Assembly (NCBI GenBank): GCA_963920705.1
Contig: OY987232.1
Coordinates: forward strand, 5,335,200-5,399,199
Reading direction: 5' to 3'
Source of the DNA: Odiellus spinosus
Taxonomy: Eukaryota > Arthropoda > Arachnida > Opiliones > Phalangiidae
DNA length: 64,000 bases
In this document: positions 20,958 through 52,930 of the stretch, piece after piece
Position numbering within the stretch: the first letter of the stretch is position 1
Layout: each line of letters starts with the position of its first letter
Notes under the pieces: model-generated
The model's input: the letters and a program-made list of their open reading frames with translations, nothing else
Told to the model about the DNA's origin: nothing
Database searches by the model: none
Made by a program: the position numbers and the translations under genes

Positions 20958-21144
20958 ATTATTCGTATCCAAATCTAATGTCAGCTTGTTGTTGAGATCA
21001 AAGTCTAGAAAACCGTTATATAATTCAACGCCCGCACTTTTTAAGAGTAAGTTGGAAAACCAAAATATAACCTCCCCGACCCCGACATCAAGGTAAAATA
21101 ATCTAACCTAACCCTACCTAAAATAAAAAATGAAAATAAATGTA

Positions 21145-21365
21145 GAGTAAAAATGTTTTCATAGAAGAAAATACACACGGAGGCAATTCTAAAATAAACT
21201 TTAATTTAAAAGTTATCAGAGGAGCTTTCGAGCTCGTGGCTCAACTTCGAGACGCGAAGTTGATAAAGAGCCACGAGCTCGAAAGCTCCTCTGATAACTT
21301 TTAAATTAAAGTTTATTTTAGAATTGCCTCCGTGTGTATTTTCTTCTATGAAAACATTTTTACTC
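21145..21365. mobile_element. Near-perfect 221 bp hairpin built of Penelope-type ends
   Basis: Arms of about 100 bp pair almost perfectly around a short CTTCGAGACGCGAAG centre. Each arm contains GAGCCACGAGCTCGAAAGCT, closely resembling the GAGTCACGACTCGAAAGCTC block of the Penelope-like element at 13302-13321. The likely reading is two terminal repeats head to head with no coding body between them. Confidence 0.7.
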
Positions 21366-22079
21366 GTATAAGTAAACCATGGACAAGAATAGGTTTTATA
21401 TTTATAAATGTAGAGTATTGGAAGAGTAGAAGAAACAGCGTGCATTTCAATCACACTTCTCTATTTCCCCAGCTAGGTTACGGAGTATAAGTATTTTCCC
21501 TTAACCTCAAGGATTCAGAGAATGCAAAAGAGTGTCCTACGTTACCCGTAATTATATGCGACAGGGCGTAGATTTGTTAATAGACACACCAAATTAAATG
21601 TTTATTTTCGAAGTAAATATGTAAAATACAAGTGCTTGTAATATAAATTAATACTTGAGCATAGGCTGTACTGTGTGATTATCTTTGATAATCCACCAAT
21701 TTGATAAAGACGAAGGATGTAGTCTGGGATGGCAAGGAAGACAAGGAATTAAAACGACGAAGATATGGTTGAAAGTTCCTCTTGGACAAACCAAGAAACA
21801 TTCTAGACTGAATGGTACATTTACAACCCATTGTCGGTAGATGATTGGCAATTACTTCCGGTACAGATTTCGTCTGAAATTCTTGTTTTGACGTGCTAAT
21901 AGAGGACCATTACTGATATTTTCATCATACGAGAGATCCCAGTCATTGGAAGAATCCAAGGATAGAGCTGGTCGAGAGGTTATTTTCCAAACCGGCTGAC
22001 AAGACGTTAGTTTCCACTCCTATGATAAAAAAAAAATCTAAAAGACTGAAAGTAGACTAATTTCCATGCCATTAGTATT
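21366..22079. other. Unassigned intergenic stretch
   Basis: No supportable gene; the minus-strand frame at 21648-21851 has no recognisable feature. Confidence 0.4.
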
Positions 22080-22810
22080 TATACTTGAATAGCTCCTTTT
22101 ATGTTTAGAATAACGAGGCCTATGAAGAACTTTCGAGCTTCTACTGACTGTAGGTATCTCATATGTCGAGTCCGAAAACACTCACTGCTTGCATTAATCA
22201 ATTCATCGTAGCTAGGCCGTCTCTTTCTGGTGATAAATGAAACCCGTCTCGCTGCTCTGTTGACTTTAAATGGTTATGACATTCTGTGCTGTATGATTTT
22301 CTCACTTAAGTCATTATAGCTCTCTTTCGTATGGTCTCGTCTCGTCTCGTCTTGTCGCCTGGTCTGCCAACGAAGTTCATTGTACACGGCCGCTTTTGAT
22401 TATGAAAATAATCGGAAATGTTTCTTGGTTTTATAGTGGAGAAAAATGAAGCCTATTTTTTTTCAGCATGAGATGTCCATTTTTTATTCAAAATTGTTGT
22501 TTTTTAAACACGGGAAACCTATTGTACTTCTGTCCAAGGAGAATTTTCACGACTATAATTTTTCTTAAGAGGTTTAACATTTTGTATCAATCCGCCTCAG
22601 CTTTAAGTCTTATTTCGTTTCTATCTTGGATGCCCGTGTAAACGTACCTTTATTTAGGTTCTTCAATCCACCCCAAGTTTGCAGCAAGCCTTAGCCTATA
22701 CAGCCCGTTATACCTTTGCTTTTTGGACTAAATGATATATGGAAAACAGCTTAGCGTGTGCTACCAACTCAAACTGATATAGTAAACGGTCACATTTCTA
22801 TAAATTTTTG
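22080..22810. repeat. Dispersed repeat X, copy 1
   Basis: Matches the right edge of the window (about 63400-64000) in reverse complement, including a TCTCG microsatellite at about 22330-22352. Its last 190 bp recur in direct orientation at 23730-23925, on the far side of repeat Y. Confidence 0.8.
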
Positions 22811-22844
22811 TTCATTGTGTAATGTTCATACAGAGACATAATAG

Positions 22845-23725
22845 ATTAAATAAGCCACATTTCTAAGTAATGCGATTTAAATTCAATCACCTCAGTTTAT
22901 TCGAGTACTCTACCCAAAAGATCGTGAGAAAGGGCCTCTTAACACCGAAATATAGGCGAGATACGATTGCCCACACAATCGAAGACGACACCACCGCGCA
23001 AGTGAGAGGGTTCACCACAATTCTAAACACTAACGTAAACCACCCATTGGAGTAGTACATCTATGAGTACCGAATCTGTAAATCTAGTTTATATAGGCTG
23101 AGAAGAGATTTATTAAAGTTAAAAAACCAAATGATAAGAAAATTATGCCTACTTTTTAATTACTGTGAATTTAATGGGATAATCATGATATAATAAAATT
23201 AAACGGCTGAAGAGGGCTACCCGAGTAGAAGAACCCATTGAATGTAATTTTAAGTTATCGATAAAAAATACCATTAAAATAGCTTATCTATTGTTTAATA
23301 AATAATTTTTTGTTCATCAATTTAGAACCACTTAAAAAAGTTCAGCTAGGTTTATGTTTTAACCTTTTCGTAACCCATTCAGCCACCTTTCTCTCTATTG
23401 CTTCATATACCTTATCAACCTTTCATTATTAACATCTTTGTTTAACCAAGAGAAGCACTCGTACTCAATAAACTATACTTTCTCTCTATTAACTCGAATT
23501 CAATGGATATTCCTTATCATTCTACTGTTTAAGAAATAAAATGTTTGTTTACCATTTTGAAGCAATTAATAAAGCTCGGCTAAGCTAATGATTTCACCCT
23601 TTTGTAACCAATTCAGGCACCTTACTTTCTATTACTTCGTGTACTTTATCAATATTTCATTATTTAAATCTGTGTTTAACTAAAGATACTCTCGTACCCG
23701 AAAGAAGTCTTATCAAATTTTGTCA
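22845..23725. repeat. Dispersed repeat Y, copy 2
   Basis: Direct-orientation match to 15140-16090. It is bracketed by direct copies of the end of repeat X. Confidence 0.8.
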
Positions 23726-23729
23726 AAGT

Positions 23730-24110
23730 ACCTTCGATACCCGTGTAAACGCACTTTTATTTAGATTCTTCAATCCACCCCAAGTTTGCAGCAAGACTAA
23801 GGCTATACTGCCCGTTATACCTTTGCTTTTTTGACTAAATGATATATGGAAAACAGCTTAGCGCGTGCTGCAAACTCAAGCTGGTTTTAAACGGTCACAT
23901 TTCTTTAAATTTTTGAACAATTTCTTAAATATCTTCTAAACTATCTCGAATTTTAAATTGATTTTTCAACTGAATTATTAATTAGATTAAGTTTAACCAT
24001 TTTGATATTTTTAATTATAAAATAAAATTATATTGCGTTTAATTTCCCTAAACGATATCACACCATAAGGGTCATTTGCATTCACTCCAAAAAGGTAGTA
24101 TATAAACCAT
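23730..24110. repeat. Dispersed repeat X, distal part
   Basis: The first 195 bp duplicate 22620-22810. The remainder matches about 63160-63400 inverted, so in the 63 kb copy the two halves of X are contiguous. Confidence 0.78.
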
Positions 24111-24244
24111 TCGAGTTATTAATCGAGTGATGTGGCCATGACGTTGGGAGGAACACCCCCTCCCTTCAAAGTCTAGACGTTTATCGTAACCCTAGGCACT
24201 TGGTAGGCAACGCTAATTTACCCATTGGTCGGGCGATGTTTGGA

Positions 24245-24520
24245 GAGTGGAAGATTGATGTGGACCATATTAGTGAGGGACGCCTCGCTAATATGGCCCG
24301 CTGAGATCAGACACTAGAGGTTGGACCTTGATGTGGGGATGGTCGGAGGTAATTATAACAGTGGGAGACGTCCCATTGCGTATAATCGCCTTCAACTGTC
24401 CAGCATCGAGGTTTGACCGTAAAGTGGATGGTGAAAGGCGATAATATGCAATTGGAGACGTCCTGTTGCATATAATTGCACGGCACCTGAAACTCAATGT
24501 GGCAGCCACGCTTAAAGGAG
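24245..24520. repeat. Three-hairpin tandem array with GACG loops
   Basis: Hairpins at 24265-24296, 24352-24386 and 24441-24476 have stems of 14-16 bp that differ in sequence, but every loop is GACG. Loop-to-loop spacing is 88 and 90 bp. Two hairpins recur inverted at 40811-41066. The spacing and shared flanking words (GATGTGG, GGATGGT) show it is a tandem repeat whose stems diverged while remaining able to pair. Confidence 0.8.
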
Positions 24521-24673
24521 GTAATTCCCGTTAAACGGAATTGAACGATAAGCTGGCATGATTACGTCTCTAGACTTTTGGCTCCACGAGCTAGGTCACG
24601 TGATTTCCGCTTACACAGGATATCCGCTTACACAGGAAGTGACACACAGATACACAGACAAGACCAGTCTAAA

Positions 24674-24707
24674 ACCTCCCCCTGAACTAAAGTTCAGTCG
24701 GGGAGGT
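24674..24707 (-). repeat. Variant Helentron-type hairpin, minus strand
   Basis: On the minus strand TTTTT is followed by ACCTCCCCGACTGAAC, then an AGTTCAG...GGGAGGT closing arm, the same architecture as the Helentron 5' end at 26060. A GT-rich stretch follows on that strand at about 24620-24665, paralleling the GT microsatellite beside the full Helentron end. Confidence 0.7.
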
Positions 24708-25489: not shown

Positions 25490-26059
25490 TAACCAAATTC
25501 GCGGGAAAAAGTTCGAACGCCGCTCGCCAGGCGGAAACCCGGCGAGGAAAACCCTTATAAGACGTTTGAATTGCGCAACAGCTTCGGTCTCATCCTCAAA
25601 CTCTTCAGTTTTGTTTCCTTCGATCGATGTACCAACACGACCCCAGCTCCGAAAAATCCAGGGTTTGCTTCTTTCGTCGGACTTTAATACTTGTAACTTT
25701 TAAGAAGAGTTTGTTCCAAGAGCTATTTCAACTTTTCCAAGAACAGCATTGTATATCCCATTTTTATCTTCTAAAACATGAGCGTGGGCTTCGAGTTTAG
25801 AATCTGGTTCAACAGGCACACTCCCTTTAAGGGCGAGTTTGACTTTCGTGCTTTTACTCGATAAGAAATGGAACTCGCTTTTTCCCGTACTTATAAGCTT
25901 CTTTTCGGTAGCTGATTGAATTCTATCTTCCGGGTTTCCACCCCAGCTAGCGATGCTGTACTGTTTGATCGTTTGAACCGAACCACTCTTTTCAACAGCG
26001 TCAATGAAATCTTCGGAAACAACGGGTATGTCATTTTCTTCCGCTTCTCTGATCTTTTT
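25490..26059 (-). pseudogene. PARP1: PARP1 pseudogene, 3' piece: BRCT end, linker and WGR domain
   Basis: Read on the minus strand, the sequence gives KKIREAEENDIPVVSEDF, the end of the PARP1 BRCT domain, then a linker and the start of the WGR domain (KLALKGSVPVEPDSKLEAHA, then GKVEIALGTNS). The WGR core follows in a shifted frame as PWIFRSWGRVGTS. Homology fades near 25490 before the regulatory and catalytic domains, so the copy is 3'-truncated as well as frameshifted. PARP1 detects DNA breaks and makes poly-ADP-ribose; this relic cannot. Its upstream half lies at 36952-38035 beyond the inserted Helentron. Confidence 0.88.
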
Positions 26060-26093
26060 ACCTCTCCGAGTGAACTTTAGTTCACGGAGAGGT
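26060..26093 (+). repeat. Helentron 5'-terminal hairpin
   Basis: ACCTCTCCGAGTGAAC pairs with GTTCACGGAGAGGT across TTTA, with a 2 nt bulge. It is the exact 5' end by the PARP1 junction. Confidence 0.88.
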
Positions 26094-26104
26094 TCTGTCC
26101 TGAT

Positions 26105-26186
26105 CGTGTGTGTGTGTGTGTGGGTGTGTGTGTGTGTGGGTGTGTGTGTGTGTGGGTGTGTGTGTGAGTAGGTGTGTGTGTGTGTC
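26105..26186. repeat. GT microsatellite next to the Helentron 5' end
   Basis: An 80 bp run of GT with regular GGGT interruptions. A microsatellite beside a terminal hairpin is a known Helentron/HINE layout. Confidence 0.92.
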
Positions 26187-27534
26187 CGTCGTTCGCCGTG
26201 TTCGCAATTACGTCATCGCAAGAAAATTCTATTTTAGTTCACCACTCTTCTCATAGGTGGCGGCACATTTTCCAAATTTTGAAATTTTCTATTTAAATAA
26301 AACATCTCACAGGTGGTCTCCCACCCAGTTACTGTCCGCGCTCGCCGCTGCTCCGCTTTAGAGATAGCCATGCGAACGCTCTAACGACTTTGCTATAAGC
26401 ACTTGTAGGAATCTTAGATAAAAACCTCTTAAATCTGGAAGGGGTGCACTACGGAAGCCAGGCCGTGTTATAGTACTGCCGCTTATAATGCTTTATATGT
26501 ATCCAATTAAATAAAAAATTTTAAAGCTTATTACTCTTAATTTAAGTTTTATAATAAAATATTACTAGTCCTCCGCGATCATAATATAATATTTAAATTT
26601 AATTATATTTTGTAAATGAATTTGTTGTTAACTTTTTGTCACTAGGTCACGCTAGTCTCTTGATCGTTCCCCTCGAAACTTTGACCTTTGTCTTGGCCTA
26701 TTGCAGCGTCATCTGCTTTCACTATTATTTTGATTATAATTTTAATGCAACATTAATTAATTTTTAACACTACATTAAATTATGCATTTTATTTGTAAAT
26801 TTAATTGATCACCAAAAGATTTAGAAATAATTTTTTTACGTGTATCTCAAATTAAAACTCACACGATGGCTTTAACTACTGCTTAGATACCACATGAATC
26901 CTTTATCTTACGGTCCTAACTCCTAACATTCATTCCCCTTTTTTTTGGCGTCCCCACCCCCCAGTTCGCGCCCGGTTTCGTTCCACAATACGCACCCCCC
27001 CCCCCATCATCCTTGGCTACGATAGCAAAAGCAAAAGTAAAACTAAAAAGCTTCTAGAACTTTCAAAATATCTTTGTGTTGTCAGTACTAAGTGGTCGAA
27101 TAGTATAGAAGCGTTATTGAAACTCGTTGGACTGTTTTGGAATACGCAACGCTACTTTTTAATCATAAGTCTGATAAGATTTTTAATATTCTGCTTCGGC
27201 AATCGTTAGTTTGACTTGTTATTTTCAAGAAATATTTCTTTCGGTTGCCTGAGTGTAAAACAAATTCACAAAGAAAAAGGTTTTCTTTGACTATCCTTCA
27301 AGCGCTACTTTGTGTGAAATTATTTTCGGTATGTTTTTTCATTATTCATTCTTCTAATTATACTGAGCTTACATTCCTTTTGTTTTTTCATTAATTTATG
27401 ATTTGAATTTATTACTAACCAATGTTTGCCATTGGTAATTAACCTTTAATTGATTGATGCTTTAATTATTATTGATTAAGTACTTATAAGTATTCCATAA
27501 GGTATTTTTTCTGGTTGAAACATTAAATTTTAAA
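26187..27534 (+). promoter_or_regulatory. Helentron 5' non-coding region
   Basis: About 1.35 kb without a supportable frame separates the terminal hairpin and microsatellite from the Rep start. It must hold the promoter if the element is expressed. A C-rich tract lies at 26992-27004. I see no decisive TATA or initiator assignment. Confidence 0.4.
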
Positions 27535-30500
27535 ATGAATGTGGATGAGTCTTTTAGCAAAGAGGAGCTTCGAAAGCGTAAAGCTAGGGATAGAATGAGG
27601 GAGAAAAGGTCAGATCCTGAATTTCGAAGGAGAGAAAATGAAAGGAAGAGATTTTTAGCATCGCAAAAGAAAGATAATGCATCGGGAATCTCACATCAGG
27701 AAAGTAAAAAATTACAATGCAGTCAATCTAATGAGACCTCGGAAAATTCTAAACACGCGGGTAAAAGGGATAATGTAGAAAGTATTGGAGTTGGGAAGTT
27801 AGCCATTATAAATGACAAAAGTGAAATTCTATCGGCCTTTTCTTCCACGTTGCGAGCTGATGCAAATTCTCAGGCCAGAGAGCGAATGAGAATTCTACGT
27901 CAAAATGAAGACTACAGAGCGAAGGAAGCAGAGGCTAAAGCAAAAAAGAGAAAGGAAACCACATTTAGTGAAACAGAAATTCTGGCGAATAGTCTAGCCA
28001 AAAAAATGAAGCGGTTAAACGATGGATATAAAGCAGATGAACGTGTGCGAAACCAGTTGGCCATGGCTGTTAGACGACAAAATGTTGAGTACGCAGAAGC
28101 AGAACGTGACCGTAACCAGTCGGCGATGACTGTTAGACGACAAAATGTTGAGTACAGAGAAGCCGAACGTGATCGAAATCAGAAAGCGATGGCTGTTAGG
28201 AGAGAAAATATTGAGTACGCAGAAGCAGAACGTACTCGTAAGCAGAAAGCGATGGCTGTTAGGAGAGAAAATATTGAGTACGCAGAAGCAGAACGTGACC
28301 GTAACCAGTCGGCGATGACTGTTAGAAGACAAAATGTTGAGTACAGAGAAGACGAACGTGATCGAAACCAGAAGGCGATGGCTGCTAGGCGAGAAAATCT
28401 TGGGTACACTGAAGCCGAACGTGATCGAAATCAGAAAGCGATGGCTGTTAGGAGAGAAAATATTGAGTACGCAGAAGCAGAACGTACTCGTAAGCAGAAA
28501 GCGATGGCTGTTAGGAGAGAAAATATTGAGTACGCAGAAGCAGAACGTGACCGTAACCAGTCGGCGATGACTGTTAGACGACAAAATGTTGAGTACAGAG
28601 AAGCCGAACGTGATCGAAACCAGAAGGCGATGGCTGCTAGGCGAGAAAATCTTGGGTACACTGAAGCCGAACGTGATCGAAATCAGAAAGCGATGGCTGT
28701 TAGGAGAGAAAATATTGAGTACGCAGAAGCAGAACGTACTCGTAAGCAGAAAGCGATGGCTGTTAGGAGAGAAAATATTGAGTACGCAGAAGCAGAACGT
28801 GACCGTAACCAGTCGGCGATGACTGTTAGACGACAAAATGTTGAGTACAGAGAAGCCGAACGTGATCGAAACCAGAAGGCGATGGCTGCTAGGCGAGAAA
28901 ATCTTGGGTACACTGAAGCCGAACGTGATCGAAATCAGAAAGCGATGGCTGTTAGGAGAGAAAATATTGAGTACGCAGAAGCAGAACGTACTCGTAAGCA
29001 GAAAGCGATGGCTGTTAGGAGAGAAAATATTGAGTACGCAGAAGCAGAACGTACTCGTAAGCAGTCGGCGATGGTTCTTAGGCGAGAAAATGTTGAGTAC
29101 ACAGAAGCCGAACGTGATCGTAACCAGAAGGCGATGGCTGTTAGGCGACAAAATGTAGAATACAGAGAAGCAGACCGTGGTAGAAATAGAGTTTCTATGG
29201 CCGAAAGTAGGGATGACCCCGTGTACATAGAAGACACATATTTCAATACCATAAAGGAAGGACCAACTTGGCTATGCGTTGGATGTACAAATCTTTTTTT
29301 TAAAGCATCTGGCAGTTTGGTTAAATCTGAAATATATTTGTCCATATCTGGGATTAACCCTCGTGAATTAGACGAAAAGATTTTCTTATGCAGCGCTTGT
29401 AGTAAAGCTATAAAAAGAAAAGAAGTTCCAAAATTCTCTCAAGAAAATGGATTTGTATTTCCTGATATTCCCGTTGAATTGGTAAACATTTCAAATTTAG
29501 AAGAGAGAATGATAGCCCCCCGAATACCTTTTATGCAACTAATGAGATTGGGGTGTGATCGACAAAGAGGAATTAAGGGGAACGTAGTTAACGTCCCTAT
29601 TAATGTTGAGTGTACAGTATCTGTTTTACCAAGGTTACCTCGCGACACCGACACCATACAAATTGAATTCATGAGAAGAATGCAATATAGGTCACCGTTT
29701 ATGTATGAAACTGTTAGACCCAAAAAAATTATGGAAGCCCTTAGTTTTTTAGTAAGAACTCCATTGTATCAGAAGCATGAAATAACGATTAACCGCAATA
29801 TATTAGACCCTATTCAGGAAGAACTTGAATTTATTGTTGACGAAAATGATCGTCAGTTAGAGCATGTTGACATCTCGCAGGAAAACACAGATTTGCAAAA
29901 TAACGAAAGAGATAGTGATGATTTGTGGAATGAGCCGGATGTTGTTAATTTAACCCCGGTTGGAAATCAGGATACGTTATTAGTGTCTTCGGCGGATTTT
30001 TTGCCTTCAAATACCATGCACGTTACATTTGCACCTGGGGAAGGGCAAAAACCTATATCATTATTATTTGACGAGGACGCGGAGGAATTATCTTTCCCAA
30101 GTATATATGTTGGCCAAAAAAGAGAACTCAAGGTTAAAGCAAGCTACGGGGATATAGTTAAATGGGAACTTCGTAATTCTGATCGGCGTTGCGCGAAGAA
30201 TCCCTCAAAACTATTTTACTCTTTCGTTAAGTTAGAAACTTTAAAAGTGAGTCAAGCTATACAAGTGTGTATGAGGAAAACTAAAAAAAATGATGGGTCA
30301 AATTATACTGCTGGATATTTATCTTCCGAGGGAGCCCTTGAAAGCCTTATTAAGCAGGATGATGGGTTTCGTGTCCTTGAAAAATTACAATCTTCTCCTT
30401 CTTACTGGCAACATAGGCAGAAAGAAATGCTAGGTATGCTTAGGCAACTTGGGACGGCTACTCTCTTCGTGACGCTTTCTGCCGCCGAAAGTAAATGGCC

Positions 30501-32088
30501 AGAGCTACTTAACGTGTTGCGCGTAACCTCTGGGCAAGAAAGTCTAGAAGCGCAGGAAGTGTTGAGTTTAAGTTACGCGGAAAAGTCAAAACTTATTCAG
30601 GATGACCCAGTTACTTGCGCTCGTTATTTTGACCACCGTTTTCGAGCTCTTCTTAAAGCTCTACAGAAATTAGGCCCCCTTGGAGTTATAGAAGATTATA
30701 ACTTCAGGGTTGAAATACAACAGAGAGGCTCTCCACACCAACATGGCCTAGTATGGATTAAAGGCGCGCCTAAACTCAAAGATGATTTTTCAAATGTCAA
30801 AGAAGTAGAAGATTTTGTGGATAAAATTATAACTTGCGCTGGCGAACACAATGATGAAGACTTAAATTTGTTGACACGGTTACAAATTCATAGACATACG
30901 ATGACTTGTAAAAAAAAGGTTAATAATACTTCCACATGCCGTTTTGGAATTCCATTTCCACCAATGCCTCGTACGATAATTTACGATCCTACGCAAAGGA
31001 AGGTTGGAACGCTAGAGGAAGAATTAAAATGCAAGAACAATAACAAACTATTGTACGATACTTTACAATCGAAAGAGAAGGAACTTTGGGTTGATACATT
31101 TGAGCAATTATTAGCAAAATTACGCATGACCGAAGCTGAATATATTGCTGCCGCTACTTACAATCTCAAGAGAAAAACAGTTCTTTTGAAAAGAAAGCCT
31201 AAAGATACCAGGGTGAATCCGTACAATGAGAAAGTTTTGCATCTTTGGCGAGCTAATATGGATATTCAATATGTTCTCGACGCTTACGCTTGCGTCATGT
31301 ACATTGTTTCCTATATAGGAAAATCTCAACGAGGAATGTCAATGCTCTTACGTGAAGCTGCAAAACAAGCGAAAAAAGACAATTGCACCGTGAAAGAGAA
31401 ACTGAAAGTAATAGCGAATCAGTTTTTAAACGCGCACGAGGTAAGCGCGCAAGAAGCCGCTTACGCTGGGTTGCAAATTCCCGTATCAAGAAGTAGTCGG
31501 GCGTGTATTTACATAAACACGAATTTGCCCGAAAATCGTGTACACATCCTTAAAAGTAAAGATGAACTGGAAGAGTTGCCAGAAGATAGTGAAAATGTTT
31601 TTTCCTCTGGTCTGATAGAACATTATGTCCAGAGGCCAGAGGAAATGGAAATGACAACGTTAGCGCAATTTGCCGCTTGGTACGAGTTTGCTAAAACTCG
31701 AAAAGTTGTTAAAAATGAATATAACGTTGATGACATCAACCAAAATGATAATAGCGAATCTTATGGTAAGTGGCTTAAATTGAAAGACTCGTCCGGTTTC
31801 GTTCGAAAACGCGGCCACTCCAAAATTATAAGATACCGCAAATTCCACGTGGATAAAGATCCAGATAACTTTTATCGCGAGCAAATAATGTTGTTCACCC
31901 CTTGGCGCGATGAAACGAAAGACATTTTGGAACAAGATCTTAGAACCGAATATGAGGTTTGCTTAGACACAATTAAAGAAGTTAGAAAAGAATTTAATCA
32001 TGAAAATGACGAGATGGCGTTTGAAAAGGCTCTAGCAGATTTTGAAAACGAAGAGATTGAAGCTGACCTTACTAACATTCAACCATAA
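27535..32088 (+). CDS. Helentron Rep protein (HUH/Y2 replication initiator) with N-terminal repeats
   Basis: The 1517-codon frame starts at an ATG followed by a basic region. Residues about 160-542 are 21-residue charged repeats, likely helical or coiled coil. Paired cysteines (CVGC near 581, CSAC near 620) suggest a zinc site. The Helitron Rep domain follows: the HUH metal-binding motif is H1068-Q-H1070 in GSPHQHGLVW, and the paired catalytic tyrosines are Y1256 and Y1260 in MYIVSYIGKSQRG. Rep nicks one strand, stays bound through tyrosine, and starts rolling-circle transfer. The stop at 32086-32088 replaces a codon that is sense in the second Helentron copy (GAA there), and the helicase continues in the same frame, so it is a nonsense change inside a Rep-helicase fusion or, less likely, a read-through site. 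Confidence 0.92.
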   Translation: MNVDESFSKEELRKRKARDRMREKRSDPEFRRRENERKRFLASQKKDNASGISHQESKKLQCSQSNETSENSKHAGKRDNVESIGVGKLAIINDKSEILSAFSSTLRADANSQARERMRILRQNEDYRAKEAEAKAKKRKETTFSETEILANSLAKKMKRLNDGYKADERVRNQLAMAVRRQNVEYAEAERDRNQSAMTVRRQNVEYREAERDRNQKAMAVRRENIEYAEAERTRKQKAMAVRRENIEYAEAERDRNQSAMTVRRQNVEYREDERDRNQKAMAARRENLGYTEAERDRNQKAMAVRRENIEYAEAERTRKQKAMAVRRENIEYAEAERDRNQSAMTVRRQNVEYREAERDRNQKAMAARRENLGYTEAERDRNQKAMAVRRENIEYAEAERTRKQKAMAVRRENIEYAEAERDRNQSAMTVRRQNVEYREAERDRNQKAMAARRENLGYTEAERDRNQKAMAVRRENIEYAEAERTRKQKAMAVRRENIEYAEAERTRKQSAMVLRRENVEYTEAERDRNQKAMAVRRQNVEYREADRGRNRVSMAESRDDPVYIEDTYFNTIKEGPTWLCVGCTNLFFKASGSLVKSEIYLSISGINPRELDEKIFLCSACSKAIKRKEVPKFSQENGFVFPDIPVELVNISNLEERMIAPRIPFMQLMRLGCDRQRGIKGNVVNVPINVECTVSVLPRLPRDTDTIQIEFMRRMQYRSPFMYETVRPKKIMEALSFLVRTPLYQKHEITINRNILDPIQEELEFIVDENDRQLEHVDISQENTDLQNNERDSDDLWNEPDVVNLTPVGNQDTLLVSSADFLPSNTMHVTFAPGEGQKPISLLFDEDAEELSFPSIYVGQKRELKVKASYGDIVKWELRNSDRRCAKNPSKLFYSFVKLETLKVSQAIQVCMRKTKKNDGSNYTAGYLSSEGALESLIKQDDGFRVLEKLQSSPSYWQHRQKEMLGMLRQLGTATLFVTLSAAESKWPELLNVLRVTSGQESLEAQEVLSLSYAEKSKLIQDDPVTCARYFDHRFRALLKALQKLGPLGVIEDYNFRVEIQQRGSPHQHGLVWIKGAPKLKDDFSNVKEVEDFVDKIITCAGEHNDEDLNLLTRLQIHRHTMTCKKKVNNTSTCRFGIPFPPMPRTIIYDPTQRKVGTLEEELKCKNNNKLLYDTLQSKEKELWVDTFEQLLAKLRMTEAEYIAAATYNLKRKTVLLKRKPKDTRVNPYNEKVLHLWRANMDIQYVLDAYACVMYIVSYIGKSQRGMSMLLREAAKQAKKDNCTVKEKLKVIANQFLNAHEVSAQEAAYAGLQIPVSRSSRACIYINTNLPENRVHILKSKDELEELPEDSENVFSSGLIEHYVQRPEEMEMTTLAQFAAWYEFAKTRKVVKNEYNVDDINQNDNSESYGKWLKLKDSSGFVRKRGHSKIIRYRKFHVDKDPDNFYREQIMLFTPWRDETKDILEQDLRTEYEVCLDTIKEVRKEFNHENDEMAFEKALADFENEEIEADLTNIQP
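28015..29160 (+). repeat. 63 bp coding minisatellite within Rep
   Basis: About 18 units each encode 21 residues such as YAEAERDRNQSAMTVRRQN. A higher-order period of 252 bp (four units) is clear. Because the unit is a multiple of three, the antisense strand is also open, giving a spurious 378-codon frame. Confidence 0.95.
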
Positions 32089-32151
32089 TCTGAACATCGT
32101 AATGAAATCGATAGATCAGTCGCCGCGGAAGATTCCGATTTTCTAGTTAAT

Positions 32152-34440
32152 ATGGTGCAAATTGCTAAAGGTGATATCAATAGAGATGTTGATAACGGAA
32201 ATAATGATAAAACCATTTTGCCGTCATTAACCTTAGTGGATGATTCGGAATATCACGGTATTCTTAGAAAGTTGAATGCGAAACAAAGAGAGATATTTTA
32301 CCACGTTTTACTTCACGTAAAGACCGAGAGAACCCCTTTACGCCTTTTTGTTACTGGAGGGGCTGGTGTTGGAAAAAGTCTATTGATTTGTGCCATTTAC
32401 GAAGCTGTTTCTAGATTTTTCAACAAACAGCCAGGGTCAAATCCTTCAGAAGCAAAAGTTATAAGATGCGCTCCTACGGGAAAAGCCGCTTTTAATATAA
32501 GTGGGGCTACTTTACATAGTACTTTTTGTTTACCCGTTAGCCAATTTGCTGGAAATATTTCTAGGCTCGAAAGTGAAACTCTTCACAAATGTCGAATACT
32601 TTACGGTCAATTAAAATTGGTCATAATCGACGAAATTTCAATGGTAGGTGCAAAGATTTTTAATCGAGTGAATGCTAGATTACAAGAGATTATGGGTTGT
32701 CCCGATTATTTTGGAGGCATCTCGGTTTTACTCGTTGGTGACTTCAATCAACTAAGACCCGTTCGCGATTATTTCGCTTTTCAACCACAAAGTGACATGG
32801 ATAATCCTTACGCTTCGCTGATTGGTAATCCTATATGGGAACAATTTCATTTTTCTGAACTAGAAGAGATAATGAGACAAAAGGATGATAAAATATTTGC
32901 GGAAGCTTTAAATAGAATGGCTATTGGCAAGATGACGCAAAAGGATATAGACCTGTTCTCTAGTTTAGAAATAAAGCCAAATCGTACACCTCCAAAAGAC
33001 GCTATCCATCTTTTTGCGACCAACGCCGATGTAAACAAGTTTAATTTAGAAAAACTTGCTGCGATGGATACTGAAAAAGCGTATTCAGTATCGCTGGATA
33101 TCGTTAATGGAGACCTTTCTAGTAAAGTTAAAAGTGATATTCTAGCGCAAATTGAAAAATTACCGACTTCCGATACGTATGGTCTTCCGAAAGAATTAAC
33201 ACTGGCTTGTGGGGCCAGGTATATGATGACTAACAATGTCGATACAGCGGACGGACTAACCAATGGCGCAACTGGTTGGTTAAGAAAAATAGAATACGGT
33301 ACTAATCGATACGGAGAACAATATCCGTTCAGAGTCTGGATTGAATTTGATGACCAAAACGTTGGTAAAAATTTGAGACAAAGGAGTTACGGCTTGTACA
33401 TCGTAAATAAGTTTAATAGGTCTTGGACACCCGTTGAGAAAGTTATCAAAGCATTTGCCAGAAAATGGAGGCAGAACAATGTTTCAGTGTCCAGGAAACA
33501 GTTTCCTTTGGTTATTTCCGAAGCCATTACGATACATAAAAGTCAAGGAGATACTTATTCTTCGGTGGTTGTTCATTGTAAGCCAACAAAGAAATTAGAA
33601 AAAGCCCACTTGTACGTGGCGTGCAGTAGAGCAAAATCAGCTTCTGGTTTATACATTGATGGTAAATTTCAGGTTCCGAATTCGCCTAACAACAACGTCG
33701 TAGAGTTGGAACTAAAAAGATTGCGAGAAACGCGGATGATAGAATTGCCGTTCTTGAAAAATCAGATTTGTATTTATGTACATAATGCGCAGTCCTTAAA
33801 CGCCCATTTACCAGATATTCTAGCCGACAACGTTATATTAAATAGTCAATTGTTATGCTTCGTTGAAACGTGGAAGAAAGAGACGGATAATTTTAGTGTT
33901 CCATCCTTTAGAGAAGTTGGTGGTATTTTCCTACCAAGGACAGCGCATAGAGTTGCTTTTGGCTCTTCGATTTATTTAAAAGATAAATCGGAAAACACGG
34001 TTAAGGCTATGGATAACAGAGTTTTACGAAGTGACAGACCTTTCAGAAATTCTCACGTGGAACGTTGTTGGCTAGATGTTTTCATAGAAAAAGAACCTAT
34101 ATCTGTGGTTCTATTGTACAAATCTCCAGGCGCGAGTTTGAGAACTGTGTTTGAAGATTTTAACCCTTTGTTTGATGCTAAATATGATTTTTCCATCCCA
34201 ACAGTTGTTGTTGGGGATTTTAACATCAATTTTTTAAAAAGTAAAACGGCACTGACGAAGTTCTTTGAACCATTTGATATATCTCTTTTGCCAGGTCTCG
34301 AACAAAAATATTCCACTGACTATCATTGCCAGTTGGATTTGGCGTTTGGAAACCAACTATTTCGAGACCGATATGAAGCGTGTTACAGAGAAACATATTA
34401 CTCGTACCACAAGGGTATATGTATCTTTAAACAACCTTAG
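32152..34440 (+). CDS. Helentron Pif1-like helicase plus AP-endonuclease-like domain
   Basis: The 762 codons counted from the first ATG continue the Rep frame, which is open from 32089. The superfamily 1 Pif1 helicase has Walker A GGAGVGKS at residues 69-76, Walker B IIDEISMVG at about 158-166, GDFNQLRPV near 197, HKSQGDTYSS near 462 and LYVACSRA near 487. From about residue 540 an endonuclease/exonuclease/phosphatase fold follows with NAQSLNAH (546), CFVETW (about 569-574), VVVGDFNIN (about 686-693) and a terminal SYHKG histidine (about 751). This fusion is the mark of Helentrons. The helicase unwinds DNA during rolling-circle transfer; the endonuclease role is not established. All visible catalytic residues are present. 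Confidence 0.93.
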   Translation: MVQIAKGDINRDVDNGNNDKTILPSLTLVDDSEYHGILRKLNAKQREIFYHVLLHVKTERTPLRLFVTGGAGVGKSLLICAIYEAVSRFFNKQPGSNPSEAKVIRCAPTGKAAFNISGATLHSTFCLPVSQFAGNISRLESETLHKCRILYGQLKLVIIDEISMVGAKIFNRVNARLQEIMGCPDYFGGISVLLVGDFNQLRPVRDYFAFQPQSDMDNPYASLIGNPIWEQFHFSELEEIMRQKDDKIFAEALNRMAIGKMTQKDIDLFSSLEIKPNRTPPKDAIHLFATNADVNKFNLEKLAAMDTEKAYSVSLDIVNGDLSSKVKSDILAQIEKLPTSDTYGLPKELTLACGARYMMTNNVDTADGLTNGATGWLRKIEYGTNRYGEQYPFRVWIEFDDQNVGKNLRQRSYGLYIVNKFNRSWTPVEKVIKAFARKWRQNNVSVSRKQFPLVISEAITIHKSQGDTYSSVVVHCKPTKKLEKAHLYVACSRAKSASGLYIDGKFQVPNSPNNNVVELELKRLRETRMIELPFLKNQICIYVHNAQSLNAHLPDILADNVILNSQLLCFVETWKKETDNFSVPSFREVGGIFLPRTAHRVAFGSSIYLKDKSENTVKAMDNRVLRSDRPFRNSHVERCWLDVFIEKEPISVVLLYKSPGASLRTVFEDFNPLFDAKYDFSIPTVVVGDFNINFLKSKTALTKFFEPFDISLLPGLEQKYSTDYHCQLDLAFGNQLFRDRYEACYRETYYSYHKGICIFKQP

Positions 34441-34836
34441 ATTTTAAAATTGAAAAGTCGACAAAATTGAAAAGTCGACAAAATTGAAAAGTCGACAAAA
34501 TTGAAAAGTCGACAAAATTGAAAAGTCGACAAAATTGAAAAGTCGACAAAATTGAAAAGTCGACAAAATTGAAAAGTCGACAAAATTGAAAAGTCGACAA
34601 AATTGAAAAGTCGACAAAATTGAAAAGTCGACAAAATTGAAAAGTCGACAAAATTGAAAAGTCGACAAAATTGAAAAGTCGACAAAATTGAAAAGTCGAC
34701 AAAATTGAAAAGTCGACAAAATTGAAAAGTCGACAAAATTGAAAAGTCGGCAAAATTGAAAAGTCGGCAAAATTGACAAGTCGACAAAATTGACAAGTCG
34801 ACAAAATTGACAAGTCGACAAAATTGAAAAGTCGTA
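34441..34836. repeat. 17 bp minisatellite, about 23 units
   Basis: The unit AAAATTGAAAAGTCGAC is nearly invariant, with a few GTCGGC and TTGACAAG variants at the right edge. It starts directly after the helicase-endonuclease stop. Three overlapping minus-strand frames across it are artefacts. Confidence 0.96.
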
Positions 34837-34867
34837 ATATCATTCTAGAGAGTTGATAATATTGGTA

Positions 34868-35440
34868 TGACCACTTTTAAAGGCTTGGTAAATTTGATAA
34901 GACCACTTTTAAAGGGTCGGTAAAATTTGTATGACCACCCTTAAAGGTTGGTAAAATTTGTATGCCCACCCTTAAAGGCTGGTAAAATTTGTATGACCAC
35001 CTTTAAAGGCTGGTAAAATTTGTATGACCACCTTTAAAGGCTGGTAAAATTTGTATGACCACCTTTAAAGGCTGGTAAAATTTGTATGACCACCTTTAAA
35101 GGTTGGTAAAATTTGTATGACCACCTTTAAAGGTTGGTAAAATTTGTATGACCACCTTTAAAGGTTGGTAAAATTTGTATGACCACCCTTAAAGGTTGGT
35201 AAAATTTGTAGGACCACCCGTAAAGGTTGGTAAAATTTGTAGGACCACCCGTAAAGGTTGGTAAAATTTGTAGGACCACCCGAAAAGGTTGGTAAAATTT
35301 GTAGGACCACCCGTAAAGGTTGGTAAAATTTGTATGACCACCCGTAAAGGTTGGTAAAATTTGTATGACCACCCTTAAAGGTTGGCAAAATTTGTACGAC
35401 CACCCTAGGAGATTAGAAAATTTCGTGTGACCATCCTAAG
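34868..35440. repeat. 31 bp minisatellite, about 18 units
   Basis: The unit combines GACCACCTTTAAAGG with TTGGTAAAATTTGTAT. Degenerate relatives follow the second Helentron at 57420-57690 and 58035-58340, so the array is part of the family's 3' region. Confidence 0.94.
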
Positions 35441-36951
35441 ATTGAAAAATTTATTAGGATAAAAAACAACTGAAGAGACCGCCCGAGTATCTAAATGAAC
35501 ACTCATCCACCGAAACATACCTGGTAAGTTTTACAATCATTCATAATAATATAGAATTCTAAAAGTTCGAAATATATTTCTATACTTTTACTATATTAAT
35601 ATTTTTAAATTAATTATTTATATCTACAATAAAACATTTCGTTTTTGGGCAGCCCTCTCAACAGAAAAGCTCAATTCAGTGAAAACCGGTCACTTCGGTA
35701 CGAACGCTGAACGCACCCAGTGTAAAATATCAAGACAACACTAGCATCTTCAGAGGTCGGAATTTACACCTTACCGATATAGCATGGAATACCTCGGGTG
35801 GTCAACTCTCTAGAACTGTGCCACATGTGGGCTTTAACTACCGTTACCAGGCCTTAAGCATGATTCAATCTTATGATGATGCGTAGCTATATAAAAATCT
35901 TGATCAAGACTATTCGAATGGAAACAAAAGAACAAAAATTAGTTTGAGGCCTTATTTAATTTCCCAAAAATGGGGTAAAAAAGCGCTGTACTTCTTCATA
36001 TATCTTCGGGAAGAACTCAGTATAATATACTATGGCGATTTCTATGGCGTCGAAAACATACGAATGCAAGTGGATCCTATTAATTCGGTATGTATAAAGT
36101 CTCTCAGCCCTTTTTTAAACGAAAAAGTGTCTTTTCAGTTGCTAATTATTTTTTCTAAACCGAAGTGCGTTCGATGAATTGCGCATTCGCTACCATACTA
36201 GGGATGCTCATTACCACATTTAAGCAACATTAAGGCCGCGAAATAGACGGCCTTTCATTACACCGTCACCATGTCAACTTCTTTTTTAACTATATCATCA
36301 AACTTAACTTATTTTCTTGTTGGTAAGCATTGCAGTTATACTTTAAAACGAATATCAATAAGATCAAAAACTCCTTTACTATCCTGCATGTGATTAAGTT
36401 TTTTATAATATTAGGTTAAGGGTGCTGCAATTGGCGCCTTATTAATACGGACACAAACTCATTTAAAGAAACCGTTATCTATTTAACGTTTAGTAAGATG
36501 AGGAAGTATAGGCCAAATTGAAACAAAGGGCATCCTCCTAAATCTCAACTAGACATTCCTTCGAAAGGAAAGAATCTTCAGTCTCCAAATCTCAATATGT
36601 CAACACTTCCATAGAAAAACTTCTGAAGCAGTAATATATTCTCAAGAGGATATGTTGTCCAAAAGATAATGTACACCATTAATCCTCCGTTAATTTTTGC
36701 TAAATTACATTCAACATGTCTTAAATAACCTGTTTGTGTTGAAAGTAATGGGACGGCTTTTATACTGTATTAGAAATTCATTTTTTTGGATCAAAAGTCT
36801 TCTAGCTTTATGACTTAAAAAATGGTCAATGTTTTTCCTTATTTTAACAAAAAAAAAAAAAAAAGAAATAAAACTTTAACATCGTCTCTTTGGAGTTTAT
36901 TCGTCTTCTTGTTTAGCTTTAGAGTTGGTACGAGGAGAGGTAATATTTTGG
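35441..36951 (+). other. Helentron 3' non-coding tail
   Basis: No supportable gene in 1.5 kb. An A tract is at 36849-36866. The last 18 bp hold GGAGAGGT, the inverse of the 5' terminus, then TAATATTTTGG. Confidence 0.6.
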
Positions 36952-38035
36952 TTTCCCAACTTGTTTGTTTCAACATCCTCCTTAGTACTAATAACGCAAG
37001 TTGTATTTTTATCAATTTGCGAAACTACAATGTATCCTAATCGAGCTACAGTTTTCTGTAACACTTCTTTCGACGCTCGCAGATTACCAACCAAAACAAT
37101 TTTTGCGTTGAGTAGAGGTCGAGGCACTCTTTTGATTCCCGATGTAGATGGTAAAGTCTTTAAATGATGGCGTAGGTTCGTTAGCGGGAAAATATCAATC
37201 ACGCTTCTCGTACTTATAACTCTTTTAAAAGAGTTATAATTTCGTCTTTGGACTCGTTTGGAATGAGGAAAGGTTTTCTCGCGGCGAGTTTCGTAACGTT
37301 TAATCATTTACTCCACTCGCTTATATTTCCCGTACATTGATACCCGTTACTAGCAAAAACAAACTGTTCTTGATTGCATTCGGTGCATGGTACTAAAGCG
37401 CCAAAAGCCATAATACCAGATAGTCTATCGAGAATCTCGCCTTCTCCAGTTGGAATTTCCTGATCATTATACTCTAAAAGTTCATCTTTCGCTTCTTTTT
37501 AAGCAGTTTTTCCAGAGAATCGCGCCAATTGCAAACCATTTGAGATTTGTTTTCGAGTTTTTTCTTTTCTCCGTCAAGGATTTCCGGAGGATTTTCAGTT
37601 TTTTTCTGGTAAAACGTCTATTTTCTTCAGTTTTTCTTTGATCGCTCTCTGATCTACAACATCAAGTGTCATAAACCCTTGAATTTTGGAGCCATCGTCG
37701 AGAAATCAACGTGATACCAAAGTTGAAATGGACCGAATCGCCTCGATTTATAACTTTCTCTATCAATTTTTTGATATCCTAGGTTGGTCTTTCACGAGGT
37801 ATTCTTCGCATCCCCTGCAGGAAGATTGGTTTGACTTCGCGTACTCTGTTGAAATTCGCTTATTTGCGTAGGGTCTGTATTTCCAGGTGTGCCCGTTGAA
37901 CATTCACCAGTCATTTTATTGCGAATTTTTTCCTGGTCATCCCAACGTATTGATTCAAAATGCGAAATGTCCGCGTCTGACTTCACTTTAAATTTTTCAA
38001 GAAAACATCCAAAATGGTACCAATTTGTAGAATTC
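36952..38035 (-). pseudogene. PARP1: PARP1 pseudogene, 5' piece: Zn1 end, Zn2, PADR1/Zn3 and BRCT
   Basis: On the minus strand the order is the end of zinc finger 1 (TNWYHFGCFLEKFK, then SIRWDDQEKIR), zinc finger 2 (STEYAKSNQSSCRGCEEY, later LWYHVDFS), the PADR1/Zn3 domain (DQEIPTGEGEILDRLSG, CTECNQ) and BRCT (LLNAKIVLVGNLR, then CVISTKEDVETNKLG). Several frame changes and stops separate these blocks, so it is dead. The first half of zinc finger 1 is missing near 38035. No intron is evident between domains, which hints at a processed copy, although degenerate introns cannot be excluded. BRCT continues at 26059 after the Helentron. Confidence 0.9.
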
Positions 38036-38079
38036 GCGAAAAAAACAACAAAAAAAACAACAAAATAATACGTTAAACA

Positions 38080-38286
38080 TGTTGGTGGAAACTGTTCACA
38101 GTTCCCGGTTGCTTTAATTTAACAAATTTGTGTAGACGGTATCGCCCTCTACCGAACATTAATACCGACAGACATAGAAAGAAAGAGCGAGAGACAACAC
38201 CTTTTTACTTTTACTTTTGTATTTAATAACATTAAAAAGTCACCTTATTATGTAACGCTTCTTTGTCGTCCTTATAAATAATAACA
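38080..38286 (+). repeat. 5' LTR of the Copia fossil
   Basis: Begins TGTTGG and ends AATAACA, 207 bp, followed at once by GGTTATGGGTCCAG, the primer site type used by Copia elements (internal half of initiator tRNA-Met). Confidence 0.75.
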
Positions 38287-42496: not shown

Positions 42497-42688
42497 ATGG
42501 AAAGAGACGAAGGTATAAGTAGAGAGGAACTGAAAAAGCGTAAAGCTAGGGAGAAAATGAGAGAGCACAGAGCTGATCCAAAGTATCGTAGGAGGGAAAA
42601 TGAAAGAAGGAAAGTTTTGGCGGCCCAAAGGAAAGCCAGTATGTCATTGAATGTGGTTAATAATCCTGTTACTAGTATACCTAGGTAG
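42497..42688 (+). pseudogene. N-terminal Rep piece of the second Helentron
   Basis: A 63-codon frame with EELKKRKAREKMREHRADP aligns with the start of the intact Rep (EELRKRKARDRMREKRSDP), then is cut by a stop. The following 250 bp contain frameshifted remains before the repeats begin. Confidence 0.85.
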
Positions 42689-42943
42689 TTCGTCTGAAGT
42701 GATCTTATCTCGCAATATTGCTGGGGAGAATAATTTTGAAGTAGTGTCATCTGCCAATGTGGTTAAAAGCCATTCTGGAGTGGTAGAAATAGGGTTAATA
42801 GAGGGCTTAAGAAATTCTCCAAAAAAATGAAAATAAACCATCTCTTTCTAAGTGAGAGCGAAGGGCTAACGACACGGCAGGTGGCGAAAAAAATTAAGAT
42901 GAATAGTAAAAATTATGGTGAGAATGAGCGTATTCGGAACCAG

Positions 42944-45900
42944 TTAGCGAAGGCAACTTCGCGACAAGACGTAGATTATAGAGAAGAACGTGCTAAAAAT
43001 CAGTTGGTGATGGTTGGTAGACGCCAAGTGGTAGAATATAGAGAAGCTGAACGTGCTAAAAATTAGTTGGCGATGGTTGATAGACGCCAAAAGGTAGAAT
43101 ATAGAGAAGCTGAACGTGCTAGAAATCAGTTGGCGATGGTTGATAGACGCCAAGTGGTAGAATATAGAGAAGCTGAACGTTCTAAAAATCAGTTGGCGAT
43201 GGTTGTTAGACGCCAAGAGGTAGAATAAAGAGAAACTGAACGTGCTAGAAATCAGTTGGCGATAGTTGGTAGACGACACGAAGTAGAATATAGAGAAGCT
43301 GAACGTGCTAGAAATCAGTTGGCGATGGTTGTTAGACGCCAAGAGGTGGAATAAAGAGAAACTGAACGTGCTAGAAATCAGTTGGCGAAGGCTGACAGGC
43401 GCCAAGAGGTAGAATATAGAGAAGCTGAACGAACTAAAAATCAGTTGGCGATGGTTGATAGACGCCAAGAGGTGGAATAAAGAAAAACTGAACGTGCTAA
43501 AAATCAGTTGGCGAAGGCTGACAGGCGCCAAGAGGTAGAATATAGAGAAGTTGACCGTTCTAAAAATCAGTTGGCGATGGTTGGTAGACGACACGAAGTA
43601 GAATATAGAGAAGCTGAACGTGCTAGAAATCAGTTGGCGATGGTTGTTAGACGCCAAGAGGTGGAATAAAGAGAAACTGAACGTGCTAGAAATCAGTTGG
43701 CGATGGTTGGTAGACGACACGAAGTAGAATATAGAGAAGCTGAACGTGCTAGAAATCAGTTGGCGATGGTTGTTAGACGCCAAGAGGTGGAATAAAGAGA
43801 AACTGAACGTGCTAGAAATCAGTTGGCGATGGTTGGTAGACGACACGAAGTAGAATATAGAGAAGCTGAACGTGCTAGAAATCAGTTGGCGATGGTTGTT
43901 AGACGCCAAGAGGTGGAATAAAGAGAAACTGAACGTGCTAGAAATCAGTTGGCGATGGTTGGTAGACGACACGAAGTAGAATATAGAGAAGCTGAACGTG
44001 CTAGAAATCAGTTGGCGATGGTTGTTAGACGCCAAGAGGTGGAATAAAGAGAAACTGAACGTGCTAGAAATCAGTTGGCGAAGGCTGACAGGCGCCAAGA
44101 GGTAGAATATAGAGAAGCTGAACGAACTAAAAATCAGTTGGCGATGGTTGATAAACGCCAAGAGGTGGAATAAAGAGAAACTGAACGTGCTAAAAATCAG
44201 TTGGCGAAGGCTGACAGGCGCCAAGAGGTAGAATATAGAGAAGTTGAACGTTCTAATAATCAGTTGGCGATGGTTGGTAGACGACACGAAGTAGAATATA
44301 GAGAAGCTGAACGTGCTAGAAATCAGTTGGCGATGGTTGTTAGACGCCAAGAGGTGGAATAAAGAGAAACTGAACGTGCTAGAAATCAGTTGGCGATGGT
44401 TGGTAGACGACACGAAGTAGAATATAGAGAAGCTGAACGTGCTAGAAATCAGTTGGCGATGGTTGTTAGACGCCAAGAGGTGGAATAAAGAGAAACTGAA
44501 CGTGCTAGAAATCAGTTGGCGATGGTTGGTAGACGACACGAAGTAGAATATAGAGAAGCTGAACGTGCTAGAAATCAGTTGGCGATGGTTGTTAGACGCC
44601 AAGAGGTGGAATAAAGAGAAACTGAACGTGCTAGAAATCAGTTGGCGATGGTTGGTAGACGACACGAAGTAGAATATAGAGAAGCTGAACGTGCTAGAAA
44701 TCAGTTGGCGATGGTTGTTAGACGCCAAGAGGTGGAATAAAGAGAAACTGAACGTGCTAGAAATCAGTTGGCGAAGGCTGACAGGCGCCAAGAGGTAGAA
44801 TATAGAGAAGTTGACCGTTCTAAAAATCAGTTGGCGATGGTTGGTAGACGACACGAAGTAGAATATAGAGAAGCTGAACGTGCTAGAAATCAGTTGGCGA
44901 TGGTTGTTAGACGCCAAGAGGTGGAATAAAGAGAAACTGAACGTGCTAGAAATCAGTTGGCGATGGTTGGTAGACGACACGAAGTAGAATATAGAGAAGC
45001 TGAACGTGCTAGAAATCAGTTGGCGATGGTTGTTAGACGCCAAGAGGTGGAATAAAGAGAAACTGAACGTGCTAGAAATCAGTTGGCGATGGTTGTTAGA
45101 CGCCAAGAGGTGGAATAAAGAGAAACTGAACGTGCTAGAAATCAGTTGGCGAAGGCTGACAGGCGCCAAGAGGTAGAATATAGAGAAGTTGACCGTTCTA
45201 AAAATCAGTTGGCGATGGTTGGTAGACGACACGAAGTAGAATATAGAGAAGCTGAACGTGCTAGAAATCAGTTGGCGATGGTTGTTAGACGCCAAGAGGT
45301 GGAATAAAGAGAAACTGAACGTGCTAGAAATCAGTTGGCGATGGTTGGTAGACGACACGAAGTAGAATATAGAGAAGCTGAACGTGCTAGAAATCAGTTG
45401 GCGATGGTTGTTAGACGCCAAGAGGTGGAATAAAGAGAAACTGAACGTGCTAGAAATCAGTTGGCGATGGTTGTTAGACGCCAAGAGGTGGAATAAAGAG
45501 AAACTGAACGTGCTAGAAATCAGTTGGCGATGGTTGGTAGACGACACGAAGTAGAATATAGAGAAGCTGAACGTGCTAGAAATCAGTTGGCGATGGTTGT
45601 TAGACGCCAAGAGGTGGAATAAAGAGAAACTGAACGTGCTAGAAATCAGTTGGCGATGGTTGGTAGACGACACGAAGTAGAATATAGAGAAGCTGAACGT
45701 GCTAGAAATCAGTTGGCGATGGTTGTTAGACGCCAAGAGGTGGAATAAAGAGAAACTGAACGTGCTAGAAATCAGTTGGCGAAGGCTGACAGGCGCCAAG
45801 AGGTAGAATATAGAGAAGTTGACCGTTCTAAAAATCAGTTGGCGATGGTTGGTAGACGACACGAAGTAGAATATAGAGAAGCTGAACGTGCTAGAAATCA

Positions 45901-51000: not shown

Positions 51001-51039
51001 ATGGAAATCCTGATAAAACGATCTCGCCGTCAGTTACTT

Positions 51040-51983: not shown

Positions 51984-52140
51984 CGGGCCGTTGCCGGCCA
52001 CGTTTATTTATAGGTCTCTCACAATTTCATCAGAAACGTCTATGGAGATTACCCTTATGAGGTGGTAATATTTTTCGTCTTGATAACTGGAATCTTCGTC
52101 TCCTTCGTCTCCCGACCGCGAGCCGTTTCATTGAGAGTTT

Positions 52141-52430
52141 GCATTCAAGAGAGAACAATATGTTAGGATCATGGGGGTACTCTTATATTTTTCTATACGT
52201 TTCGGATGAATACTAAGACTGAGATAACAAAAGCTTTATAGATAACGTTGAAACACCGTAAAAGACGGCGTTTCACTGGGAGTTTGCATTCGAAAGAGAT
52301 AAATGTGTTAGATTTACAAGGGTGTTCTATTATACTTTTATTTTGTTGAATACTAAGACTGAGTAACAGTAGCTTTGATAACATTAGAAAGAAAGACGAA
52401 AAAAATGATAACGTTGGTGTATGAAGTTGA
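52141..52430. repeat. Two-copy ~144 bp tandem duplication
   Basis: Units starting GAGTTTGCATTC near 52135 and 52278 share GAATACTAAGACTGAG and an AGCTTT-containing tail, and are clearly diverged. Confidence 0.7.
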
Positions 52431-52818: not shown

Positions 52819-52930
52819 GATAGGACACAATAACGATGGGATATAATCTCGATGGGACGCAATCTCGACAGAACATAATGTCGATGCGACACAATCTTGA
52901 TAGACCATAATCTTCATGTACATAATCTCA
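52819..52930. repeat. 16 bp minisatellite, seven units
   Basis: Degenerate units of the form GATGGGACACAATCTC repeat in register. Confidence 0.85.

What the first reader, a model, noticed from the sequence alone, without database searches (positions are those of the whole stretch)
26060..36951. Whole Helentron with base-exact ends, dated by the PARP1 relic it interrupts
The PARP1 frame resumes exactly when 26060-36951 and one TT are removed, so the ends do not depend on a consensus. They show a 34 nt terminal hairpin at the 5' end, an inverse GGAGAGGT 10 nt from the 3' end, and T-T insertion. The coding frame carries Rep, Pif1 helicase and endonuclease motifs with a single internal stop. Complete autonomous Helentrons with independently proven borders are uncommon.
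Basis: partly seen in the sequence, partly recalled or inferred. Interest (0 to 1): 0.85.

Follow-up and report, generated by a model that had tools for sequence, protein, structure and literature searches.

The report
Helentron transposon in broken PARP1 gene

Summary
The element is real and is best read as a Helentron: Rep (Helitron_like_N), Pif1 helicase and a weakly scored C-terminal endonuclease-like domain, split by one in-frame stop, with a 5' terminal hairpin and a 3' subterminal inverted repeat, inserted at Ts in a PARP1 relic (Zn1, PADR1, BRCT, WGR pieces). The claim of base-exact, consensus-independent ends fails at the 3' end. The frame test could not have shown this: 25 of 27 tested right ends keep an open frame for some choice of T-run. 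Alignment scores lean modestly to the corrected end (3 of 4 PDB sequences that span the junction; 2 of 3 Pfam models). The corrected end rests on two copies and no empty site. No date follows from the relic. dN/dS against a second coding copy is 0.11-0.13. Five IMG/VR scans found no relative; no own genome is held. New member of a known kind.

The parts
26060..36962 (+). Helentron, corrected extent 10,903 bp (26058-36960 and 26059-36961 are equivalent because of the flanking Ts)
   Evidence: PARP1 frame resumes with no further deletion; 3' end shared with the minus-strand element ending at 21049
26060..26093 (+). 5' terminal hairpin, outer arm = 5' subterminal repeat (TT)ACCTCTCC
   Evidence: DNA fold -12.2 kcal/mol, z -5.89; other matches at 9189 and 9267 (+) and 24706 (-)
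27535..32088 (+). First frame, 1517 aa: N-terminal repeats, DUF6570, Rep (Helitron_like_N); ends in the in-frame TAA
28039..29179 (+). About 18 copies of a 63-bp in-frame repeat in the N-terminal part of the Rep protein
   Evidence: open frame
32152..34440 (+). Second frame, 762 aa from its first ATG: Pif1 helicase and C-terminal endonuclease-like domain
   Evidence: PIF1 3.3e-26; Exo_endo_phos_2 0.0029, below cut-off; PDB PIF1 chain 7otj 1.3e-30
34446..35406 (+). 17-bp array (34446-34834) and 31-bp array (34852-35406)
36934..36943 (+). 3' subterminal inverted repeat GGAGAGGTAA
   Evidence: 10-nt inverted match to the 5' end
36948..36959 (+).
   Evidence: 23 of 200 shuffles of the 22-nt piece and 111 of 200 of the 42-nt piece fold as well; same stem in the 21049 element (19 of 200), loop differing by one base
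25553..26059 (-). PARP1 relic, second half of BRCT to part of WGR
36963..38097 (-). PARP1 relic, part of Zn1, PADR1/Zn3 and first half of BRCT, broken by stops and frame changes
21049..24707 (-). Second element with the same kind of termini, about 3.7 kb, no frame of 150 aa or more: probable non-autonomous partner (HINE)
42500..57335 (+). Second, diverged and broken Helentron coding copy (68-81% nucleotide identity by stretch); ends not found

Best explanation
A Helentron (endonuclease-class rolling-circle transposon) inserted among Ts in an antisense PARP1 relic, extent 26060-36962. Inferred mechanism, from established models of Helitrons and Helentrons: Rep nicks at the 5' end beside the hairpin, Pif1 unwinds, copying runs to the 3' end marked by the subterminal repeat and stem-loop ending ...CCCAACTT, and the single strand is joined into a T-rich site without target duplication. 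This copy has one stop between its Rep and helicase parts and is probably not autonomous now. Shown: Rep and Pif1 domains, termini, insertion in PARP1, T-rich site, 3' end shared by two copies. Inferred: nicking, strand transfer, the role and identity of the endonuclease-like domain.
For: Rep and Pif1 profile matches, weak endonuclease match; Rep motif VEIQQRGSPHQH with the S that PMC4067079 gives for Helentrons; 5' hairpin and its copies; 3' end shared with a second element; frame restored exactly by removing 26060-36962; corrected junction scores 75.6 against 73.3 bits to PARP1 chain 9mi8_A, 36.0 against 32.0 to BRCT and 24.9 against 22.5 to BRCT_2; the same T/C difference stands in both tips of the two elements; dN/dS 0.12, 0.11 and 0.13 in three stretches, 4 codons with stops left out.
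Against: Only two copies carry a 3' end and no empty site was seen. Score differences are small, and some go the other way: PDB 2le0 42.8 against 43.2, Pfam PTCB-BRCT 16.0 against 18.0. The 3' stem is 4 bp and not significant by energy. The endonuclease match is below the Pfam cut-off, no PDB sequence matched it, and the predicted structure was useless (mean pLDDT 31.9). No RPA frame was seen. The second Helentron Rep signature (F/Y-x-R) is only partly matched.
Confidence: 0.88

Rival explanations
1. The reader's boundaries are right (26060-36951), and the 11 bases shared with the other element reflect a target preference or chance.
For: Helentrons prefer T-rich targets (PMC4067079); KLGKK aligns with KMNKK of PARP1; 2le0 and PTCB-BRCT score slightly higher with this end.
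Against: 10 of 11 bases match at exactly the adjoining position, then 11 of 29; after TTT, 7 of 8 or better to CCCAACTT occurs at 4 of 5840 window positions, which must include the two ends themselves; an extra TT must be removed; the boundary cuts the possible 3' stem-loop.
Confidence: 0.1
2. The minus-strand copy descends from the PARP1 insertion and carried the adjoining 11 bases with it by 3' read-through, so the bases are PARP1 in origin.
For: Helitrons can carry off flanking DNA (recalled); only two 3' ends are known here.
Against: The two elements match each other only at their tips in the searches made (79% over 68 bp at the 5' end), so recent descent is unlikely; the corrected PARP1 junction fits without the 11 bases.
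Confidence: 0.03
3. It is a Helitron2-type element (no endonuclease) rather than a Helentron.
For: The endonuclease profile match is weak. Helitron2 also has asymmetrical terminal inverted repeats and palindromes at both ends (PMC4067079 passage).
Against: 229 aa follow the helicase; the part that could be compared is 77% identical in the second copy (123 aa), and the helicase-to-end stretch has dN/dS 0.13; ETW, GDFN and SYH motifs were read by eye.
Confidence: 0.08

Closest known systems
Helentrons of Metaseiulus, Culex and Drosophila (Thomas et al. 2014, PMC4067079)
   Same: Rep-Pif1-endonuclease order, Helentron-type Rep motif 2 with S, palindromic subterminal repeat close to the 5' end, inverted copy near the 3' end followed by a stem-loop, insertion at Ts without duplication, tandem repeats
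   Different: 3' repeat 19 nt from the end (38-60 bp given for the mite HINEs); 4-bp stem, 3 nt from the end (palindrome of 5-10 bp, 8-35 bp from the end in the mite); no RPA frame seen; long coding repeat in the Rep N-terminus (not compared with theirs)
HINE / DINE-1 non-autonomous partners (PMC4067079; passages of PMC7492417)
   Same: the 21049-24707 element has both tips and no long frame
   Different: away from the tips no similarity to this Helentron was found, so it is not a simple deletion derivative of it
Helraiser (canonical Helitron, PDB 7lcc)
   Same: helicase match E 6.4e-15; Rep match only E 0.082
   Different: Helraiser reads RGLPH where this Rep reads RGSPH (alignment); no C-terminal endonuclease (recalled)

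Membership tests
Helentron | Rep domain with motif 2 ExQxRGSPHxH (S, not L) | tested here: met
   VEIQQRGSPHQH in P0001; Helitron_like_N 4.3e-26; criterion from PMC4067079. The second signature, F/Y-x-R before it, is only partly matched (NFR)
Helentron | Pif1 helicase | tested here: met
   PIF1 E 3.3e-26; PDB PIF1 chain 7otj 1.3e-30
Helentron | C-terminal AP-like endonuclease | tested here: inconclusive
   Exo_endo_phos_2 E 0.00088, 19.6 bits against cut-off 27.4; no PDB match at E up to 10; fold prediction too poor
Helentron | Subterminal inverted repeats at both ends | tested here: met
   10-nt and 11-nt inverted words at the tips of the two elements; 9 and 1 of about 5000 random pairs reach them
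Helentron | 3' palindrome | tested here: inconclusive
   TTGG/CCAA in 2 of 2 ends; not significant by folding energy
Helentron | Insertion between Ts without target duplication | tested here: met
   frame restored exactly with flanks ...TTTTT and GTTT, two of the Ts assignable to either side; not checked on an empty site
Helentron | Place in the Helentron clade of a Rep/helicase tree | not tested
   no reference sequences of Helentrons were at hand
PARP1 (host relic) | Zn1, PADR1, BRCT, WGR in order | tested here: met
   zf-PARP alone is under its Pfam cut-off (32.7 against 39.3) but matches PARP1 chains at E down to 3.9e-10; no Zn2 or catalytic domain among the 6 pieces scanned

The most novel reading that the evidence does not exclude
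The outer arm of the 5' hairpin and the single 3' arm change together between subfamilies (CTCTCC/GGAGAG here, CTCCCC/GGGGAG in the minus-strand element), which would mean that the two ends of this Helentron lineage pair, or are read by the same Rep surface: a compact natural test of end recognition. At present it rests on one changed position in two elements.
Probability: 0.2. Interest if true: 0.4.

Novelty: new member of a known kind. Interest (0 to 1): 0.25.

Why it matters
It gives one long Helentron with an insertion site in a recognisable gene, useful as a reference sequence. More generally it shows that a resumed reading frame does not by itself fix a transposon end: a neighbouring element moved the end by 11 bases and removed the need for an extra TT.

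Tried and rejected
Own-genome search for more copies and empty sites: no genome is held. IMG/VR: 5 scans, for the Rep part, the second frame, its C-terminal part and both termini, gave no related locus (in one search two stretches matched a pattern but none was confirmed). These scans need exact short words, so distant relatives could be missed. Ends of the second coding copy (42500-57335): none found with this family's 5' and 3' patterns at up to 3 mismatches. Other genes in the element: of 6 stop-to-stop pieces of 55 aa or more in 26060-27534 and 35440-36962, 2 were scanned with Pfam, without a match. Structure of the C-terminal domain: mean pLDDT 31.9, so no fold search was made. LTRs of the copia-like element: none between the stretches compared. 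PARP1 N-terminus beyond the copia-like element: three-frame translation read by eye only, nothing recognised.

Full report
What is there. By its content the window is eukaryotic DNA rich in mobile elements (inference); no own genome is held, so the species is unknown. Between two pieces of an antisense PARP1 relic lies an element of about 10.9 kb. Its first frame (27535-32088, 1517 aa) carries N-terminal repeats, DUF6570 (E 6.1e-22) and Helitron_like_N (4.3e-26); its second (32152-34440, 762 aa) carries PIF1 (3.3e-26) and a weak Exo_endo_phos_2 match (0.0029, below cut-off). One TAA at 32086-32088 separates them; they are in the same frame. The second copy in the window is open at that place (frame 49881-51212).

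The host relic. Pieces of the minus strand match PARP1 in order: positions 46-111 (Zn1), 283-340 (PADR1/Zn3), the BRCT region from 408, and 591-638 (WGR) of PDB chain 9mi8_A (Pfam). The calls do not show that chain's species. The zf-PARP match (32.7 against 39.3) and BRCT from the right flank alone (17.0 against 21.3) are under Pfam's cut-offs; BRCT of either joined version, PADR1 and WGR are above. The relic is broken by frame changes and stops away from the junction. Without a reference from a related species the insertion cannot be dated.

The 5' end. The hairpin ACCTCTCCGAGTGAACTTTAGTTCACGGAGAGGT, in the stretch 26058-26097, folds at -12.2 kcal/mol, 0 of 200 shuffles as well. Sixteen bases of its first arm (CCTCTCCGAGTGAACT) match 4 places in the window at up to 3 mismatches, 0.28 expected: here, 9189 and 9267 (a tandem pair), and 24706 on the minus strand. 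All four are preceded by TTA, which supports the 5' end.

The 3' end. A pattern written from the two 3' ends after they had been seen, with two ambiguous bases, finds only these 2 places at up to 3 mismatches, and none in 100 shuffles: 36939-36962 and 21072-21049. Across the window, 4 of 5840 places that follow TTT match CCCAACTT at 7 of 8 or better, which must include the two ends themselves. The shared stretch holds TTGG-TTTY-CCAA, where Helentrons carry a 3' stem-loop (PMC4067079), but the stem is not significant by energy (23 of 200 shuffles of a 22-nt piece, 111 of 200 of a 42-nt piece).

Why the frame did not show it. With the left end fixed I tried 27 right ends (36945-36971), each with 0-2 bases of the T-run dropped: 25 of 27 keep an open frame across the junction for one of the choices. 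End 36962 needs none: GATCTTTTT|GTTTGTTTC reads ISTKEDVETN-KKIREAEENDIPVVSEDF. Of the 4 PDB sequences whose match spans the junction, 3 score higher with the corrected end (9mi8 75.6 against 73.3, 2cok 46.5 against 44.8, 7scy 44.1 against 42.4) and one lower (2le0 42.8 against 43.2). Of the 3 Pfam models that span it in both versions, BRCT (36.0 against 32.0) and BRCT_2 (24.9 against 22.5) favour it and PTCB-BRCT (16.0 against 18.0) does not. These differences alone would not decide; the shared end and the exact frame carry the argument, and the shared end rests on two copies.

Paired termini. Here the 5' tip and the inverted 3' tip share 10 nt (TTACCTCTCC), reached by 9 of about 5000 random pairs of 40-mers from the window; in the minus-strand element they share 11 nt (ACCTCCCCGAC), reached by 1 of about 5000 (pairs closer than 60 nt were skipped). 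One T/C difference between the elements stands at both tips. This links the two ends of each element and is the basis of the novel case.

Coding history. Against the second copy, the best aligned piece of three different stretches gives dN/dS 0.12, 0.11 and 0.13 with dS 1.18, 0.97 and 0.78 (419, 332 and 401 codons; 4 codons with stops left out). So the proteins were kept by selection during much of the time since the two copies parted.

Comparison with the literature. Of Thomas et al. 2014 (PMC4067079) I saw the outline, passages, part 1 of section 4, and sections 8 and 11; of PMC7492417, passages; other papers as search listings only. The element fits Helentrons in Rep motif, domain order, subterminal repeats and insertion among Ts. 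It differs in shorter 3' spacing, a smaller stem and no RPA frame seen. Full-length Helentrons and partners with boundaries supported by empty sites are described there, so this is a new member of a known kind.

Noticed in passing
42965-48824: In the second, broken Helentron copy the 63-bp coding repeat of the Rep N-terminus has grown to about 93 units (5.9 kb), and stops recur through the array in the frame that carries the repeat motif, as if a dead coding repeat had grown into a satellite.
   Followed up: partly
9188-9305: Two 5' hairpins of the same family in tandem, about 78 bp apart, followed by a 14-bp minisatellite around 10210-10800 and no 3' end found with this family's pattern.
   Followed up: partly
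15115-16103, 61715-62423, 63145-64000, 9464-10243: Diverged relatives of parts of the minus-strand HINE-like element (21049-24707), about 67-88% identical by stretch, without recognised ends.
   Followed up: partly
24152-24423 and 40801-41073: A stretch of about 270 bp, 84% identical, shared in opposite orientation by the HINE-like element and the DNA after the copia-like frame.
   Followed up: no
3109-5568, 11867-12853, 38497-40162, 59794-60525: Frames that look by eye like gypsy, Penelope-like, copia and Tc1-like elements (translations only; labels recalled, no search made).
   Followed up: no
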